Source: Nitrospirota bacterium (GTDB lineage Bacteria > Nitrospirota > Thermodesulfovibrionia > UBA6902). Taken from it: DNA of 64,000 bases. Under the pieces are notes generated by a model, which saw only the letters and a program-made list of their open reading frames with translations, did not search any database and had not been told where the DNA came from. The DNA lies in NCBI GenBank assembly GCA_016215115.1, contig JACRLN010000020.1, forward strand, positions 1-64,000. Reading direction: 5' to 3'. This document shows, piece by piece, positions 497 to 12,064 of this stretch. The number at the start of each line of letters is the position of its first letter. Within the stretch, counting starts at the first letter, position 1. Both the position numbers and the translations under genes were made by a program.

Positions 497-862
497 ATGA
501 TTCTTGTTGATACCTCAATCTGGATATTTCACTTCCGGGAAGGCAATTCACATCTTAAGAAATTATTATTTGATGAGCTTGTTGTTTGTCATCCATTTAT
601 AATCGGTGAGTTGGCATGCGGACATCTCAAAAATAGAGAAGAGATTATTGCATTGCTGAAGTCTCTTCCGAAAGCACGGACTGTTGAGAACGATGAGATT
701 CTGCATTTTATTGAGAACAGAAAATTAATGGGCTTAGGGATTGGGCTTATTGATGTGCATTTATTGGCGTCTTCCTTGCTGACTAATACATTATTGTGGA
801 CGGCTGATAAACAGTTAAGCACAGCCAGCTCTAAATTGAACATTCTCTATAGAGAGCAATAA
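497..862 (+). CDS. vapC: VapC PIN-domain ribonuclease toxin
   Basis: A 121-residue PIN domain. The conserved acidic residues are visible: D5 in MILVDTSIW, E38 in IIGELACG, D86 in GLIDVHLL and D104 in TADKQL, which bind divalent metal in VapC RNases. The family cleaves specific RNAs, often initiator tRNA or rRNA, when the antitoxin is degraded. The gene is downstream of and coupled to vapB. Its stop codon is six bases before the first attC, so vapBC and that attC form one cassette. The length is close to the family norm and no damage is seen. Confidence 0.87.
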   Translation: MILVDTSIWIFHFREGNSHLKKLLFDELVVCHPFIIGELACGHLKNREEIIALLKSLPKARTVENDEILHFIENRKLMGLGIGLIDVHLLASSLLTNTLLWTADKQLSTASSKLNILYREQ

Positions 863-4653: not shown

Positions 4654-5328
4654 ATGAAAAGGATATTTGTTTTAGCTGTGATCATGGCGATGGTATTAGG
4701 ATTTACTTTGCAGGCTAATGCTGCATTGGAACTCCGGGGCACGGATAACCAAGGCAATCGGCTTATCTATGACACTGATTTTAATATTACGTGGTACGAT
4801 TACTCGAAGTACAATGCTCAGTTGAACTGGGCATCTGCCTTTAACTGGGCATCTGCCTTGTCGGTGTCAGGGGGAGATTTAGTGGGGGTTTATGATGACT
4901 GGAGACTGCCCACTGCCCTGAACCAAAATGGGACAGGCCCTTGCAGTGGCCCTAACTGCACTGGAAGCGAGATGGGGCATTTGTTTTATACGGAGCTTGG
5001 GAATACTACAACCTTGGGATTAACCAAAAAAGGTGACTTTCAGAATTTGGTGTCGCCGTACTACTACTGGTTGCAGGAGTCCGCCAGTTCAGCCGCCGCG
5101 TGGAACTTCAGTACCGGCAGTGGCTATCAGAACGCCTACTCTAAGAACAACGCCTTCTACGCCATGGCCGTTCGTCCCGGAGATGTCGCCGTAGTTCCTG
5201 AACCAATAAGCTTTATTCTCTTTATCACAGGCGGAACGCTTTTAGCAGGGAGAAGATTATTAAGAAGGCATAACACTTATAAGGCCTCCGGTTGTCAAGG
5301 GCAAAAGATCACCCTTCACGGATTTTGA
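4654..5328 (+). CDS. Exported PEP-CTERM protein with a DUF1566-like domain
   Basis: A 224-residue protein with a signal peptide ([23 protein letters not shown]), then an Lcl/DUF1566-like region ([61 protein letters not shown]). A PEP-CTERM signal follows: [19 protein letters not shown] then RRLLRR, recognised by exosortase. Start at 4654 has GGGAGG upstream. The codons for HN (5269-5274) lie in the inverse core GCATAAC, and everything after them (TYKAS...LHGF) is encoded by the end of the inserted IS, so the native tail was replaced. The sorting signal is upstream of the insertion and intact. No exosortase gene is in the window. Confidence 0.78.
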
Positions 5329-5549
5329 AAAAATCCGTCATGTGAGCGATACAAATAAAACATCTTCTGACTTAATTTCAAATCAACCGGTGACAGAACA
5401 TGTCTGCACCAATTCCCCAGTTAGTTTCAGGATCGGGTAAGGGGCAGAACATGTTGTATCGCTTTATGTAATTTAAAAATCTCCCCTTTCCCCTCTTTGC
5501 CAAAGAGGGGTATTTAAGGTAGACCGGGCGTCCAATCAAGTCAAAGGCT

Positions 5550-5635
5550 GCAGGGCCTCTGATCCATGATGCTCGTAATCGCGGTCAATGCCGCAGACGA
5601 ATAGTACGTAAGAGCATTCATCAGTTTGGCTCTGC
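5550..5635 (-). ncRNA. Candidate bridge RNA of the IS110/IS1111 element
   Basis: In the 380-base gap between the transposase stop and the IS end, nested complementary segments are visible: GCAGGGCC (5550-5557) with GGCTCTGC (5628-5635, one G-U), CTGAT (5559-5563) with ATCAG (5620-5624), ATGCTC (5569-5574) with GAGCAT (5612-5617) and GCGG (5581-5584) with CCGC (5591-5594). AGACCGGGCG (5521-5530) and CGCCCGGTCT (5666-5675) close the region. In IS1111-type elements the target-guiding bridge RNA lies on the 3' side of the transposase, as here. The fold is seen; the function is inferred. Confidence 0.45.
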
Positions 5636-5658
5636 CCGTAAAGCGCTCCAGTTAGACG

Positions 5659-6726
5659 TCAGGCTCGCCCGGTCTGTATCAACTGTTTGTTTAGAAATTT
5701 CTCTATACTGAACACCTCCTGTCTTTTGAGGATATAATAAACCGCTCTTCCGATCTTGTGAGCAAGAATGGTTAATGCCTTAGCCTTGCCGTGTTTTTTT
5801 ACAAGCTTTGCCTTGTATTTCTTCACATCAGAACTTTCCCTGAGCATTATTACCGCTGCCTCTGAAAAGGCCCACTTCAGATGAGCATTGCCGATCTTCG
5901 CTCCTGAAGTGCCATATCTTTTACCTGCTGATTCCTTTGCTGATTTCACCAGCCTGCTGTAGGAGACAAAGTCCTGCACACTGGGGAACCTGTTGATGTC
6001 ATGTATTTCATAAAGAATGATTAAACTGAGGGTCTGACCGATGCCGGGCACGGACAGCAGGCGGAACAGCGCCTCCGGATCATGTGCCTTTGCTTTTTTG
6101 TTGATGTAATATTCCAGCTTCCCCAATAATTGATCATAATGGTCAATAAGTGAGATGTTGACTTCCATGCTCTTGCGCACACATTCATCACTGAACCGCT
6201 CTGCGACTCCTTCCCTGTTGCTCTTGTAGCTTATGCTTTTAAGAAATGGGGGAAGATTGTACTGATGATTGGTATTCTGGATATGGGCCAGCAGGTCGGC
6301 TCTCTTTCTCATGAGGTGATTTCTTCGCTTGAGCAAATCTCTTGTTGCTCTCATCTCCGATGGATAGACATATGCCACCGGTATCATTCCTCCTCTTAAA
6401 AGAGCAGCTATTTTATGTGAATCAATTCTGTCGTTTTTTGCCTTCCCTCCATGAATGGCTTTCATGTAAAGGGCGTGACCAAGGACAAAAGGGATATTCT
6501 CCTTTCTGCACAGATCTGATAGCCAGTACCAGGCAAACATGCATTCAACGGCTACTACAGTGTCCTCGCGGTATGGCTCAATAATCTGTAAAAATGCATC
6601 TGGTCCCGAGTCTATATTTTTTTGCTTGACTATCGCTCCCTCCTTGTCAATAATACAGACATACATGGTTCTGGCGTGGAGATCGACTCCACAATAATAC
6701 TTGTGCTGCTTAACATAGAATTTCAT
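5659..6726 (-). CDS. IS110-family DEDD transposase
   Basis: 355 residues, full length for the family. The N-terminal RuvC-like DEDD domain shows CGVDLHARTMYV (first Asp), VVAVECMFAWYWL (Glu) and KNDRIDSHKIA (Asp pair). A coiled middle follows, then the transposase_20 domain with LLSVPGIGQTLSLII and FVSYSRLVKSAKES...GTSGAKIGNAHLKW, which carries the conserved serine region. Proteins of this family recombine DNA with a bridge RNA that pairs with target and donor. Start at 6726 is preceded by a strong GAGGAGG ribosome site that can pair with the IS end. No frameshift is seen, so the enzyme is probably active. Confidence 0.9.
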   Translation of the reverse strand: MKFYVKQHKYYCGVDLHARTMYVCIIDKEGAIVKQKNIDSGPDAFLQIIEPYREDTVVAVECMFAWYWLSDLCRKENIPFVLGHALYMKAIHGGKAKNDRIDSHKIAALLRGGMIPVAYVYPSEMRATRDLLKRRNHLMRKRADLLAHIQNTNHQYNLPPFLKSISYKSNREGVAERFSDECVRKSMEVNISLIDHYDQLLGKLEYYINKKAKAHDPEALFRLLSVPGIGQTLSLIILYEIHDINRFPSVQDFVSYSRLVKSAKESAGKRYGTSGAKIGNAHLKWAFSEAAVIMLRESSDVKKYKAKLVKKHGKAKALTILAHKIGRAVYYILKRQEVFSIEKFLNKQLIQTGRA

Positions 6727-6728
6727 AT

Positions 6729-6798
6729 GGCCTCCTCCTATAAGAAAGTTTTTGTGGGTATAACATGATACTGCATTGCAGTATCATGTGAGGAGGCC
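6729..6798 (-). promoter_or_regulatory. IS-end hairpin masking the transposase ribosome site
   Basis: GGCCTCCTC (6729-6737) is complementary to GAGGAGGCC (6790-6798). On the coding (minus) strand the first-transcribed copy is the IS terminal repeat and the second is the Shine-Dalgarno sequence of the transposase. Between them is a 13-bp perfect hairpin, ACATGATACTGCA / TGCAGTATCATGT (6763-6775, 6777-6789). RNA read in from outside the IS would hide the ribosome site. The pairing is seen; the control is inferred. Confidence 0.5.
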
Positions 6799-6809
6799 TT
6801 AATTAGTAT

Positions 6810-6938
6810 CCAGTCAGTGCAGTTGAACGAGTACCACAGGACACTTTTTCAGATGAGCGATGACTTTAGATTTACTAATCGTTTTTTTTGCTTTTTAACG
6901 TCGTACAGTGGTACTCGTCACTGAATTCTACGTTGGGC
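6810..6938 (+). other. attC site 7, main part right of the IS
   Basis: CAGTCAGTGCAG, then the arm GAACGAGTACCAC (6825-6837), the arm GTGGTACTCGTCACTG and a perfect core box GTTGGGC at 6932-6938. Its inverse core is missing here but stands at 5268-5274 (GCATAAC), on the other side of the IS. Confidence 0.75.
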
Positions 6939-7830: not shown

Positions 7831-8124
7831 GTGATTCAGTCATTTAAAGACAAGGGAACGGAAGATGTTTTTAACGGCAGAAATTCTAAAGACGCAAGAA
7901 AAACCTGCCCTCAATCGTTATGGAAGATTGCATCAAGGAAATTGGATCAACTTGATTCTGTCGGACATATTAATGAACTGAGAGTTCCCCCGAACAATAA
8001 GTTAGAAGCCTTAACGAGAGATAGAAAAGGACAATATAGTATAAGGATAAACAATCAATATCGGATATGTTTTACATGGCATGAATCCGGACCTGAAAAG
8101 GTAGAAATTACGGATTATCATTGA
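7831..8124 (+). CDS. higB: HigB-type mRNA-interferase toxin
   Basis: 97 residues with a GTG start at 7831. It matches the HigB/RelE-like fold: MIQSFKDKGTEDVFNG, SLWKIASRKLDQLDSV, LRVPPNNKLEALTRDRKGQYSIRINNQYRICFTWHESGPEKVEITDYH. The family cleaves mRNA at the ribosome; the C-terminal basic and His residues (RICF...YH) are the usual catalytic region. Toxin-first order with an XRE antitoxin 30 bases downstream is typical of higBA. No damage is seen. Confidence 0.88.
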   Translation: MIQSFKDKGTEDVFNGRNSKDARKTCPQSLWKIASRKLDQLDSVGHINELRVPPNNKLEALTRDRKGQYSIRINNQYRICFTWHESGPEKVEITDYH

Positions 8125-8154
8125 TAAAAATTAAGATGTTTTATGGAGGTAAAT

Positions 8155-8484
8155 ATGGTTCGTATACCAACACATAGAGAGCCAACCCATCCCGGAGAGA
8201 TGCTCCTCGAAGAATTTTTAATTCCTATGGGGATCACCCAGCGGGAATTAGCAAATGAAATTCATGTCCCCTACCAGAGGATTAATGAAATTATTAACAA
8301 ACGTCGTGGTATAACACCCAGTACAGCATTGCGGCTTGCAAAATTCTTTGGGGTTTCAGAGGATTTCTGGATGAATCTACAGCTTCGATGGGATATATAT
8401 AAAGCGAAACTTAATGAGGCAAAAGAATTAAAGGCAATCAGGGCTATAAGAGTGAGTGGAGATTTGGCACATTCACATCTTTAG
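8155..8484 (+). CDS. higA: HigA-type XRE-family antitoxin
   Basis: 109 residues from the ATG at 8155. I prefer this start to ATG 8143 because GGAGG at 8145-8149 precedes it by five bases and lies after the earlier ATG. The sequence RIPTHREPTHPGEMLLEEFL, then ITQRELANEIHVPYQRINEII (helix-turn-helix), then TPSTALRLAKFFGVSEDFWM is characteristic of HigA. It binds HigB and the operon promoter. The stop at 8482-8484 lies nine bases before the inverse core of the next, damaged attC. Confidence 0.9.
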   Translation: MVRIPTHREPTHPGEMLLEEFLIPMGITQRELANEIHVPYQRINEIINKRRGITPSTALRLAKFFGVSEDFWMNLQLRWDIYKAKLNEAKELKAIRAIRVSGDLAHSHL

Positions 8485-8492
8485 ACTGACAT

Positions 8493-8691
8493 GCCCAACA
8501 CTTATAAGGCCTCCGGTTGTCAAGGGCAAAAGATCACCCTTCACGGATTTTGAAAAAATCCGTCATGTGAGCGATACAAATAAAACATCTTCTGACTTAA
8601 TTTCAAATCAACCGGTGACTTTAGATTTACAAATCGTCTTCATGCTCTTTATCGTCATACATGGCACTCGTCAGTGATCAGGGCGTTGAAG
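8493..8691 (+). other. attC site 9, chimaeric: left arm replaced by an IS end
   Basis: The inverse core GCCCAAC (8493-8499) is followed at once by IS sequence (8500-8619) and then by only the right half of an attC (TTTAGATTTAC... GGCACTCGTCAGTGATCAGGGC) with core box GTTGAAG at 8685-8691. The left stem arm is absent. The join at GGTGAC/TTTAGATT shares TGAC with intact sites, suggesting a deletion between IS and attC. Confidence 0.65.
8500..8619 (-). mobile_element. Relic of the IS1111-type element (one end only)
   Basis: Together with the AAC before it (8497-8619), this stretch is identical by eye to the 123 bases at 5272-5394, the end of the complete IS. It begins ACTTATAAGGCCTCC and contains the hairpin CGGATTTTGAAAAAATCCG. 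The transposase and the other end are missing. It sits right after the inverse core of an attC, the same place as in the full copy. Confidence 0.75.
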
Positions 8692-8846
8692 CTGTAGAAA
8701 AAGGCCTCTCTGAAAAATTGCGAGAGGTTGAGCAAAAAAACGGATACTCAGAATGCGCTGTATTGAACGATCTCGGGTGAGGCAAGGGTTTATGATTCCC
8801 AAAATCAAATTGATTTTTCGGACCGGAGACTTTTTCTACAGACTCG
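8686..8846 (+). repeat. Gene-less 161-bp cassette, copy 1
   Basis: The unit runs from TT of the preceding core box (8686) to G of the next one (8846, in CTCGTTAGCT). It is repeated at 9723-9883 with one difference (GAGCAAAA versus GAGTAAAA). Ends carry CTGTAGAAAAAG and, inverted, CTTTTTCTACAG, so the whole unit can fold back; an inner CCTCTC/GAGAGG hairpin is present. No reading frame of note is inside. Confidence 0.7.
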
Positions 8847-8886
8847 TTAGCTTTTAACAGATAGTTGTTCGCAGGTATTTTTTATG

Positions 8887-8931: not shown

Positions 8932-9195
8932 ATGGCACCATTAGCGACAACAAAGATGTCTTCCAAAGGACAAATTGTTATACCAGAAGATATTAGAAGG
9001 CGACTTGGATTGAAAACGGGGGCGCAGTTTATTGTAGTAGGCAAAAATGATGTGGTCATTTTAAAGTCGATTGCTCAACCGTCTATGGCAGAATTTGACC
9101 AGTTGATTTCTGATGCCCGTAAACAAGCCAGAAAAGTTGGCATGAAGAAGTCAGATATTACGTCAGCAATTCAAAGAGTACGAAAACAAAAGTGA
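8932..9195 (+). CDS. AbrB/SpoVT-type antitoxin
   Basis: 87 residues. The swapped-hairpin AbrB fold is clear: TTKMSSKGQIVIPEDIRRRLGLKTGAQFIVVGKNDVVILKS. The C-terminal half (MAEFDQLISDARKQARKVGMKKSDITSAIQRVRKQK) is helical and basic and should wrap the toxin. It is translated with the downstream PIN toxin, whose GTG start overlaps its stop by four bases. An operator palindrome lies directly upstream. This is a VapBC-like module of a different antitoxin class from the one at 297. Confidence 0.85.
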   Translation: MAPLATTKMSSKGQIVIPEDIRRRLGLKTGAQFIVVGKNDVVILKSIAQPSMAEFDQLISDARKQARKVGMKKSDITSAIQRVRKQK

Positions 9196-9602
9196 AAATC
9201 GTACTTGATACGAATGTATTTATATCTGGGGTCTTCTTTGGTGGACCGCCATATCAGATTCTTGATGCGTGGAGGCAGGGGAAGATTGAGATTGTTTTAT
9301 CACAAGAAATATTTGATGAATACCAGCGGATTGCAGCAGAGTTATCAAAACAATTTAAAGGCATAGATATTTCAGTATTTCTTGACCTGTTAACGGTTAA
9401 CGCTATTTGGGTTTACGCACCACAAATCCGATTCAGCGTTTCTACTGATCCGGATGATGATAAGTTTATATCTTGTGCTTTAGCGAGTAGAACAAAAGTA
9501 ATTGTAAGTGGTGATAAGCATCTCTTGAATATATCGGGGTTTAGATGGGTTGAGGTATTAACGCCCCGGTTATTTATAGATACGTACCAAAGCAAAAGCT
9601 AA
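9192..9602 (+). CDS. PIN-domain toxin paired with AbrB antitoxin
   Basis: 136 residues, GTG start inside the GTGA overlap with the antitoxin stop. COG1569-type PIN: MKIVLDTNVFISGVFFGGPP (D6), EIVLSQEIFDEYQRI (acidic middle residues), STDPDDDKFISCALA and VSGDKHLLNI (last Asp). The metal-binding set is complete, so RNase activity is likely. The stop TAA at 9600-9602 is inside the inverse core box of attC site 10. It is distantly related to the two toxin-first PIN proteins of the array. Confidence 0.85.
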   Translation: MKIVLDTNVFISGVFFGGPPYQILDAWRQGKIEIVLSQEIFDEYQRIAAELSKQFKGIDISVFLDLLTVNAIWVYAPQIRFSVSTDPDDDKFISCALASRTKVIVSGDKHLLNISGFRWVEVLTPRLFIDTYQSKS

Positions 9603-9728
9603 CAACCAGATGGACGTGAACGAGTGCCACAGGACGCTTTTTGGGCTGACGATGTTTTCAGATTGCAAATCGACTTTTCCCTTTCTCATGTCTTACGGTG
9701 GCACTCGTCAGTCATCAGGGCGTTGAAG
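9597..9728 (+). other. attC site 10
   Basis: The inverse core is AGCTAAC (9597-9603), with arms GAACGAGTGCCACAGGACGC (9618-9637) and GTGGCACTCGTCAGTCATC (9698-9716). The core box is GTTGAAG (9722-9728), whose TT and later bases belong to the next, gene-less cassette. Confidence 0.8.
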
Positions 9729-9883
9729 CTGTAGAAAAAGGCCTCTCTGAAAAATTGCGAGAGGTTGAGTAAAAAAACGGATACTCAGAATGCGCTGTAT
9801 TGAACGATCTCGGGTGAGGCAAGGGTTTATGATTCCCAAAATCAAATTGATTTTTCGGACCGGAGACTTTTTCTACAGACTCG
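9723..9883 (+). repeat. Gene-less 161-bp cassette, copy 2
   Basis: The second copy of the unit at 8686-8846, the same length and one base different. It is bounded by G/TT at 9722/9723 and again at 9883/9884 (CTCGTTATCT). The sequences outside the two copies differ, which places the ends exactly at the integron crossover point. Confidence 0.7.
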
Positions 9884-10017
9884 TTATCTGCGAAAATAAT
9901 AAGGCAGATAAAGAGATAAGGCACAGTTAACGTCGTTACAAATTGCAATGAAAAAGAAAAATATTACAAATGCCATTTTATTTGTTATCATATTTGAAAA
10001 ATAATGGAGGCAAGAAA

Positions 10018-10721: not shown

Positions 10722-10977
10722 ATTCAAAAACGAAGATAAAGAGAGAGAGTTTTGGGCAACTCATGATTCGACTGAGCATATTAACTGGAACAAAGGGAAA
10801 CGAGTCATTTTATCAAATCTAAAACCATCTATAAGGACAATATCTTTACGACTACCAGAGTCGATGATAGAGGAGCTTAAACTTCTTGCGAATAAAAGAG
10901 ACGTACCTTACCAATCTTTGCTCAAGATATTTTTAGCAGAACGAATTGATGAAGAATTAAAAATGGCTAAGGCCTAA
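10702..10977 (+). CDS. brnA: BrnA-like CopG/RHH antitoxin, now an orphan
   Basis: 91 residues: MKKRIPKFKNEDKEREFWAT, then HDSTEHINWNKGKRV, then TISLRLPESMIEELKLLANK and a helical end. This is the COG5304/BrnA-type antitoxin with a C-terminal ribbon-helix-helix. Its partner toxin upstream keeps only its last 38 codons. AAGGAG lies upstream at 10686-10691. The stop TAA falls inside the inverse core GCCTAAC (10972-10978). It may still repress DNA or buffer related BrnT toxins; that is conjecture. Confidence 0.8.
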   Translation: MKKRIPKFKNEDKEREFWATHDSTEHINWNKGKRVILSNLKPSIRTISLRLPESMIEELKLLANKRDVPYQSLLKIFLAERIDEELKMAKA

Positions 10978-10978
10978 C

Positions 10979-11190
10979 ACTTATAAGGCCTCCGGTTGTC
11001 AAGAGCAAAAAGTCACCCGTCACGGATTTTGAAAAAATCCGTCAAGTGAAGCGATATAAAACAAATTCTGACTTAATTTCAAATTAACTGGTAACAGATC
11101 ATGTTCAATAAGTATAGATTCCGGACAAGCCGGAATGACAACTCTTTGAACATGTCTGCACCAAACACTTATAGAGGTTCAATAGCCAGT
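10979..11190 (-). mobile_element. Second relic of the IS1111-type end, carrying a palindromic insert
   Basis: 10979-11095 is a diverged copy of 5275-5394 starting ACTTATAAGGCCTCC, again straight after an inverse core (GCCTAAC). The similarity continues as ACAG.(A/T)CATG...TCTGCACCAA, but about 45 bases are inserted between: CATGTTCAA...TTGAACATG enclosing ATTCCGGACAAGCCGGAAT, a palindromic repeat of the chromosomal type. After TCTGCACCAA the start AACACTTATA recurs at 11165. CCAGTC near 11190 matches the right flank of the full IS. Edges are approximate. Confidence 0.6.
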
Positions 11191-11220
11191 CGATCCCGAT
11201 GATTCGGGACATCTGACGAC

Positions 11221-11402: not shown

Positions 11403-11831
11403 ATGAAGAAACCACAAATAGTTATTGACACTAATGTTGTAGTTTCAGCTTTCCGGTCACAACGAGGTGCTTCCTACAAGTTATTGATGGAGATTGGAAA
11501 TGGTAAGTTTGATGTTAATGTTTCAGTCCCATTGGTATTAGAGTACGAAGATGCCGCAAAGAGGTTAATCGGCAAGACAAAACTTAAAAAAAGAGATATT
11601 GATGATGTAATTGACTATATATGTACGGAAGCAAAACGATGGAAGATATTTTATTTGTGGAGACCATACTTGAAAGATCCAAAAGATGATATGGTGTTGG
11701 AACTGGCAGTAACTTCAAAAAGCGATTTTATAGTTACATACAACAAACATGATTTTCAAAATATAAGAACTTTTGGTTTGCAGGTTGTAACACCAAAAGA
11801 AATATTGAAATTAATAGGGGTGATAAAATGA
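11403..11831 (+). CDS. PIN-domain toxin (COG1569 type), toxin-first pair
   Basis: 142 residues. PIN motifs: KPQIVIDTNVVVSAFRSQRG (D9), VPLVLEYEDAAKRL (acidic middle), KDPKDDMVLELAV and YNKHDFQNI. It shares FYLWRPYLxDPxDDxxLE with the protein at 2139, so the two are paralogues or independent captures of related cassettes. The antitoxin gene overlaps by four bases (ATGA, 11828-11831). The start is set by the leaderless promoter. The metal site appears complete. Confidence 0.84.
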   Translation: MKKPQIVIDTNVVVSAFRSQRGASYKLLMEIGNGKFDVNVSVPLVLEYEDAAKRLIGKTKLKKRDIDDVIDYICTEAKRWKIFYLWRPYLKDPKDDMVLELAVTSKSDFIVTYNKHDFQNIRTFGLQVVTPKEILKLIGVIK

Positions 11832-12064
11832 GCACGATTAGCCTAAGATTACCTGATTCATTGCATGAGACTGCTCGCGAGTTAGCTAAAAAAGACCATG
11901 TGTCTATTAACCAATTTGTAGCTACGGCACTTGCGGAAAAAATATCAGCATTAATTACTGGCGAGTATCTCGAAAAAAGAGCCAAAAGAGGAAGTAGAAA
12001 AAAATTTGAAAAAGCTATGTCGAAAGTAGCAGATGTAGAGCCGGAAGAATACGACAAAATATAA
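11828..12064 (+). CDS. RHH antitoxin of the last PIN pair
   Basis: 78 residues: MSTISLRLPDSLHETARELA, then KKDHVSINQFVATALAEKIS, then an acidic/basic helical tail (GSRKKFEKAMSKVADVEPEEYDKI). Ribbon-helix-helix DNA binding at the N terminus. It is clearly related to the antitoxin at 2555. Translation is coupled to the toxin through the ATGA overlap. It is the last gene of the array; its downstream attC is truncated. Confidence 0.82.
   Translation: MSTISLRLPDSLHETARELAKKDHVSINQFVATALAEKISALITGEYLEKRAKRGSRKKFEKAMSKVADVEPEEYDKI

What the first reader, a model, noticed from the sequence alone, without database searches (positions are those of the whole stretch)
5268..6815. IS1111-type element inserted exactly after the attC inverse core
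The attC halves are at 5268-5274 (GCATAAC) and 6810-6938 (CAGTCAGTG... to GTTGGGC); the element fits between AAC and CAG. It has TAAGGCCTCC inverted ends and an IS110-family DEDD transposase running against the cassette direction. This matches the behaviour of the IS1111-attC group, which targets cassette recombination sites.
Basis: partly seen in the sequence, partly recalled or inferred. Interest (0 to 1): 0.75.

Follow-up and report, generated by a model that had tools for sequence, protein, structure and literature searches.

The report
RNA-guided jumping gene in integron attC
A 1.5-kb jumping gene sits at one fixed base inside the recombination site of a bacterial gene cassette; it belongs to a widespread family whose guide RNA copies that site's sequence, although this particular copy has lost part of its guide.

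Summary
A 1536-bp DEDD-transposase element (window 5275-6810) lies between AAC (5274) and CAG (6811) of an attC site. Congeners carry the same cassette end and attC joined with no insert. Relics of the element follow RYYYAAC boxes at two more attC sites in this array.

The anatomy is IS1111-like, but the transposase is about 20% identical to ISPa21, an IS1111-attC yardstick; it lies in another clade, lacks the GL-P----SG motif, and enters attC 6-7 bp from ISPa21's point. It works like an IS1111-attC element but belongs to a separate clade, found in several phyla.

New evidence: in 47 relatives the non-coding region carries a copy of the attC spacer each element sits beside (0 of 20,000 shuffles match; register-specific). 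It also carries an RYYYAAC motif complementary to the flanking GTTRRRY (0 of 5,000) and a copy of the element's own right end. This is the natural covariation expected of RNA-guided attC targeting.

The window copy keeps the target guide but has lost about 125 nt, including the donor guide, so it is probably immobile unless helped in trans.

The parts
5268..5274 (+). left part of the interrupted attC: inverse core box GCATAAC
   Evidence: empty sites GGCATAAC|CAGTC in congeners
5275..6810 (-). complete element, 1536 bp (transposase orientation GATACT...TAAGT), no target duplication
5275..5298 (-). right end: TTGACA (-35 half of the junction promoter), sTIR GGAGGCCTTA, 3' extension to TAAGT
5299..5658 (-). 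non-coding region downstream of the transposase: guide-RNA region
5413..5416 (-). deletion scar (GGAA): about 125 nt of module 2 and the donor guide present in intact relatives are missing between ACTAACTGG (5417-5425) and TTGGTGCAG (5404-5412)
   Evidence: guide absent from the rest of the genome except one relic
5538..5545 (-). target guide, copy of the left attC flank (RNA TTTGACTT|GATTGG; DNA flank ACTGACTG|GATACT)
5651..5657 (-). target guide, RYYYAAC motif GTCTAAC complementary to the GTTRRRY box
5659..6726 (-). DEDD transposase, 355 aa; D15, E61, D99, D102 aligned with ISPa21 DEDD positions
6792..6810 (-). left end GATACTAATTAAGGCCTCC: -10 half of the junction promoter (GATACT) and sTIR
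6811..6938 (+). remainder of the interrupted attC, ending GTTGGGC
8500..8619 (-). relic 2: right end and part of the non-coding region, 100% identical to this element, directly after attC box GCCCAAC (8493-8499); the rest of the element and the 5' arm of that attC are deleted at a TGAC microhomology
10979..11219 (-). relic 3: right end through the donor guide ATAAGTGTTTGGTGCAG (11156-11172), about 88% identical over its right-end part, directly after attC box GCCTAAC (10972-10978)

Best explanation
This is a member of a clade of IS110/IS1111-superfamily elements specialised on integron attC sites, which I could not file under a published group. The transposase is proposed to be guided by an RNA made from the non-coding region downstream of its gene. 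[quoted passage not shown] A later segment (AUANGUG) copies the element's right end and serves as donor guide. The element inserts between the RYYYAAC box and the spacer, here with the transposase gene against the cassette. A circle joining right end to left end would create a promoter (TTGACN-18 bp-GATACT). Shown: the anatomy, ends, empty sites, and the covariation of guides with flanks and ends. Inferred: that the RNA is made, bound and used, and that circles form. In the window copy about 125 nt, including the donor guide, are deleted, so it is predicted to be immobile unless RNA is supplied in trans.
For: Exact empty sites in congeners. Most relatives with both ends found abut GTT, 53 of 55 GTTR, with attC-like joined sites for many (24 of 42 at rank 2 or better of 40 shuffles). 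Spacer guide versus left flank: 197 matches in 47 elements against 136 shuffled, 0 of 20,000; shifted registers show nothing; within-clade shuffles also 0 of 20,000; 32 distinct guides 128 against 85. RYYYAAC guide versus right flank: 112 against 92, 0 of 5,000. Donor guide versus right end: the variable base agrees in 50 of 56 and the other 6 are G/A, a possible wobble; the guide base changes at least 9 times on the tree and the end base at least 7. Junction promoter in 57 elements, spacer 18 bp in 54. Only one transposase copy in the genome, and the donor guide survives there only in relic 3. A congener carries the same left end in the same kind of attC.
Against: No experiment. The RNA was not detected, only inferred. 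Elements share ancestry, so the permutation p-values overstate independence, although within-clade and de-duplicated tests agree; the independent-pairs test had too few pairs to be decisive. Not all joined sites pass the attC fold test, and L012 is not flanked by GTT. The window copy's own guides match its site imperfectly (GTCTAAC against GCATAAC; TGACTT against TGACTG). The consensus fold of module 2 has few compensatory pairs. The window deletion could in principle be an assembly error.
Confidence: 0.82

Rival explanations
1. It is an ordinary member of the published IS1111-attC group (ISPa21, ISKpn4, ISPst6 type).
For: Same general behaviour: DEDD transposase, sTIR, downstream non-coding region, insertion in attC with the transposase opposed to the cassettes, seen also for ISPa21.
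Against: Transposase 19.8% identical to ISPa21; separate branch from ISPa21+IS4321 (99/99); motif RLVKxxxESAGK instead of GL-P----SG; inserts directly at AAC| whereas ISPa21 inserts at AACAATTCA(T)|, 6-7 bp further in; non-coding region 480-570 nt in relatives against about 240 nt by eye in ISPa21.
Confidence: 0.1
2. The element recognises the folded attC hairpin rather than a base-paired guide.
For: attC sites form hairpins and the joined site folds.
Against: The RNA segment tracks the particular spacer sequence beside each element, register-specifically, and the box motif tracks the particular GTTRRRY; hairpin recognition does not predict this.
Confidence: 0.06
3. The element came here by integrase-mediated cassette capture or by chance, not by its own targeting.
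For: It lies in a cassette array and the genome has integron integrases.
Against: It interrupts an attC at one base rather than carrying one of its own, and the same junction recurs in two relics here and in many relatives across phyla.
Confidence: 0.02

Closest known systems
IS1111-attC group (Tetu and Holmes 2008; Post and Hall 2009; yardstick ISPa21 in plasmid pME-1a)
   Same: DEDD transposase, subterminal inverted repeats, downstream non-coding region, insertion inside attC opposed to the cassette
   Different: transposase about 20% identical and in another branch; insertion at the box boundary rather than 6-7 bp further in; different C-terminal motif; longer non-coding region
IS1111 family seekRNA elements (Siddiquee et al. 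2024, PMC11187229)
   Same: downstream non-coding region; 12-bp repeat zone with 7- and 3-bp extensions; top-strand complement precedes bottom-strand match; junction promoter
   Different: no GL-P----S(t)G motif; conserved RNA region of several hundred nt with two similar modules rather than 70-100 nt seekRNAs
IS110 bridge RNA elements such as IS621 (Durrant et al. 2024, PMC11208160)
   Same: guides for both target and donor in one RNA, each matching one side of the junction
   Different: RNA is at the other end of the element, long sTIR here, transposase only distantly similar

Membership tests
IS110/IS1111 superfamily | DEDD (RuvC-like) transposase with PF01548 and PF02371 | tested here: met
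   D15, E61, D99, D102 by alignment
IS1111 family | subterminal inverted repeats of 11-13 bp with 7-bp and 3-bp extensions | tested here: met
   10 bp perfect (TAAGGCCTCC), 12-bp zone when 7/3 extensions are used with ends fixed by empty sites
IS1111 family | long non-coding region downstream of the transposase gene | tested here: met
IS1111 family | GL-P----S(t)G motif and transposase grouping with IS1111 members | tested here: not met
   RLVKxxxESAGK in the clade; separate from ISPa21+IS4321 in a tree with long branches
IS1111-attC group | insertion in attC | tested here: met
IS1111-attC group | same insertion point in attC as ISPa21 | tested here: not met
   AAC| here; AACAATTCA(T)| for ISPa21
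IS1111-attC group | transposase related to ISKpn4/ISPst6/ISPa25 | not tested
   those sequences were not at hand; ISPa21 used instead; the best-60 list of the plasmid tblastn shows nothing between 44.8% and 31.9% identity
seekRNA / bridge RNA elements | RNA segments complementary to both strands of the target, covarying with it | tested here: met
seekRNA / bridge RNA elements | RNA bound by the transposase and required for movement | not testable with these tools
   needs experiment

The most novel reading that the evidence does not exclude
attC targeting arose at least twice among RNA-guided DEDD elements. This clade, spread over several phyla, is a dedicated integron parasite whose unusually long guide RNA carries copies of both the RYYYAAC box and the neighbouring spacer of the attC it uses, and retunes them as it moves between integrons.
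Probability: 0.6. Interest if true: 0.68.

Novelty: new variant of a known kind. Interest (0 to 1): 0.56.

Why it matters
It links two fields, integrons and RNA-guided transposition. A whole clade can be scored for guide-target matches from genomes alone because each element still sits beside its target. It gives natural covariation data for guide and target positions and suggests repeated evolution of attC targeting. It also offers a test of how such insertions freeze or break cassette arrays: the relics here show that insertion followed by deletion can destroy attC sites.

Tried and rejected
Strict RYYYAAC search upstream of relatives was weak (18 of 70 against 7.8 expected), and unconstrained folding of joined sites was too strict; constrained folding was used instead. 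Module 2's 3' side was tested as a second spacer guide: the first extraction looked positive but with better anchoring it was not convincing (0.088 on the rows shared with module 1), so it is not claimed. No Rfam family matches the RNA. The predicted perfect target GTCTAACAAGTCA occurs once in ten congeneric genomes, at an attC, but one-mismatch controls are frequent, so this is only illustrative. Tetu and Holmes 2008 and Post and Hall 2009 were not held. Three accession look-ups failed. Capture as a cassette and chance insertion were considered and rejected.

Full report
Observation. The window holds a cassette array. An attC is split: GCATAAC at 5268-5274 and the remainder at 6811-6938 ending GTTGGGC. 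Between them is a 1536-bp element with a 355-aa DEDD transposase on the minus strand. Congeners give the empty site. In G030:C306 the homologous cassette end stops at 5710 and the attC starts at 5711 (GGCATAAC|CAGTCATTGG), and G031:C70 is alike. The ends are therefore AAC|5275...6810|CAG with no target duplication. In transposase orientation the element is GATACTAAT-TAAGGCCTCC...GGAGGCCTTA-TAAGT, which agrees with the 7- and 3-bp extensions reported for IS1111 elements (PMC11187229). The joined site folds as an attC-like hairpin.

More insertions of the same element. The right end recurs directly after GCCCAAC at 8493-8499 (120 bp, 100% identical) and after GCCTAAC at 10972-10978 (88% over the right-end part). 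Both are decayed. At 8619 the element breaks off at TGAC and continues in the inner part of the attC, so its 5' arm is gone. A further right-end scrap follows GTCTAAC on contig C56. Congener G025 carries the left end in an attC with the same flank CAGTCAGTGCAGTTGAACGAG. The genome has one transposase copy and two integron integrases above cut-off on other contigs.

Relatives. 80 loci from one scan include Nitrospirota (the nearest, 79%), Desulfobacterota/Thermodesulfobacteriota, Planctomycetota, Krumholzibacteria, Acidobacteria, Spirochaetota and marine Gammaproteobacteria. Where both ends are found, the element abuts GTT in 55 of 55, GTTR in 53, and the left end is (T/G)GATACT. The search pattern required GTT, so this count describes those elements and is not an independent test; L012, for example, is flanked by GATAACC. 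57 elements have TTGACN and GATA[CA]T across the right-left junction, spaced 18 bp in 54, the layout of the circle-junction promoter described for this superfamily.

Guide RNA. The region downstream of the transposase is about 480-570 nt in relatives and strongly conserved in places, with no Rfam match. Three segments match DNA. (a) NNNNAAC in module 1 is complementary to the flanking GTTNNNN: 112 exact matches at the four variable positions against 92 shuffled, 0 of 5,000. (b) The bases before GATT on the 3' side of module 1 copy the attC spacer beside the left end: 197 matches over six positions in 47 elements against 136, 0 of 20,000; registers shifted by 1-3 give nothing; within-clade shuffles 0 of 20,000; 32 distinct guides 128 against 85. 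(c) ATANGTGTTTG copies the right end ATANG: the variable base agrees in 50 of 56, the rest G/A. The order, top-strand complement then bottom-strand match, is that of IS1111 seekRNAs (PMC11187229). These are computed correlations among related elements; the RNA itself was not seen.

The window copy. Compared with L012 it lacks about 125 nt between ACTAACTGG (5417-5425) and TTGGTGCAG (5404-5412), with GGAA between. This removes half of module 2 and the donor guide; module 1 with GTCTAAC (5651-5657) and TTTGACTT (5538-5545) remains. The only donor guide left in the genome is in relic 3 at 11156-11172. The copy is predicted to be immobile in cis; the non-coding region supplied in trans works for ISEc11 (PMC11187229), so rescue is possible.

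Is it an IS1111-attC element? ISPa21, described as an IS1111-group element in attC sites (PMC11616780) and named in the In416-type integron shared with pME-1a (PMC7232449), was read from plasmid pME-1a; its identification there rests on its position between smr and qacEdelta1. Its transposase is 19.8% identical, groups with IS4321 away from this clade (99/99, with long branches), has GMTPNEYSSG where this clade has RLVKxxxESAGK, and inserts at AACAATTCA(T)| (closely similar uninterrupted attC sites are common). So the two work alike but differ in lineage and insertion point. ISKpn4, ISPst6 and ISPa25 were not compared.

Verdict. New variant of a known kind, with strong natural evidence for RNA-guided attC targeting in a separate clade. 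I found no description of this clade in the papers searched, but the two founding papers were not available, so novelty is provisional. Host: the nearest named relatives place the genome in Nitrospirota, an inference.

Noticed in passing
window 5463-5515: A REP-like palindromic repeat lies inside the element's non-coding region and occurs about 30 times across the genome; whether it disturbs the RNA is unknown.
   Followed up: partly
window 8680-8860 and 9705-9885: Nearly identical direct repeat of about 180 bp (CAGGGCGTTGAAGCTGTAGAAAAAGGCC...) downstream of two attC sites, possibly a duplicated ORF-less cassette.
   Followed up: no
window 497-862, 2139-2558, 7831-8484, 9192-9602, 11403-12064: Cassettes encode several small toxin-antitoxin-like pairs (PIN-domain-like and HigBA-like by eye); no PADLOC match for the three PIN-like proteins tested.
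   Followed up: partly
G000:C56:66409-66443 (L009): Short right-end scrap of the element after GTCTAAC outside the window; whether that site is an attC was not established.
   Followed up: partly
G000:C46:24075-25010 and G000:C20:2105-3040: Two integron integrase genes above the family cut-off lie on other contigs, none in the window array.
   Followed up: no
window 11090-11150: Relic 3 contains a hairpin sequence (GATTCCGGACAAGCCGGAATGAC) inserted in its non-coding part, resembling another dispersed palindrome.
   Followed up: no
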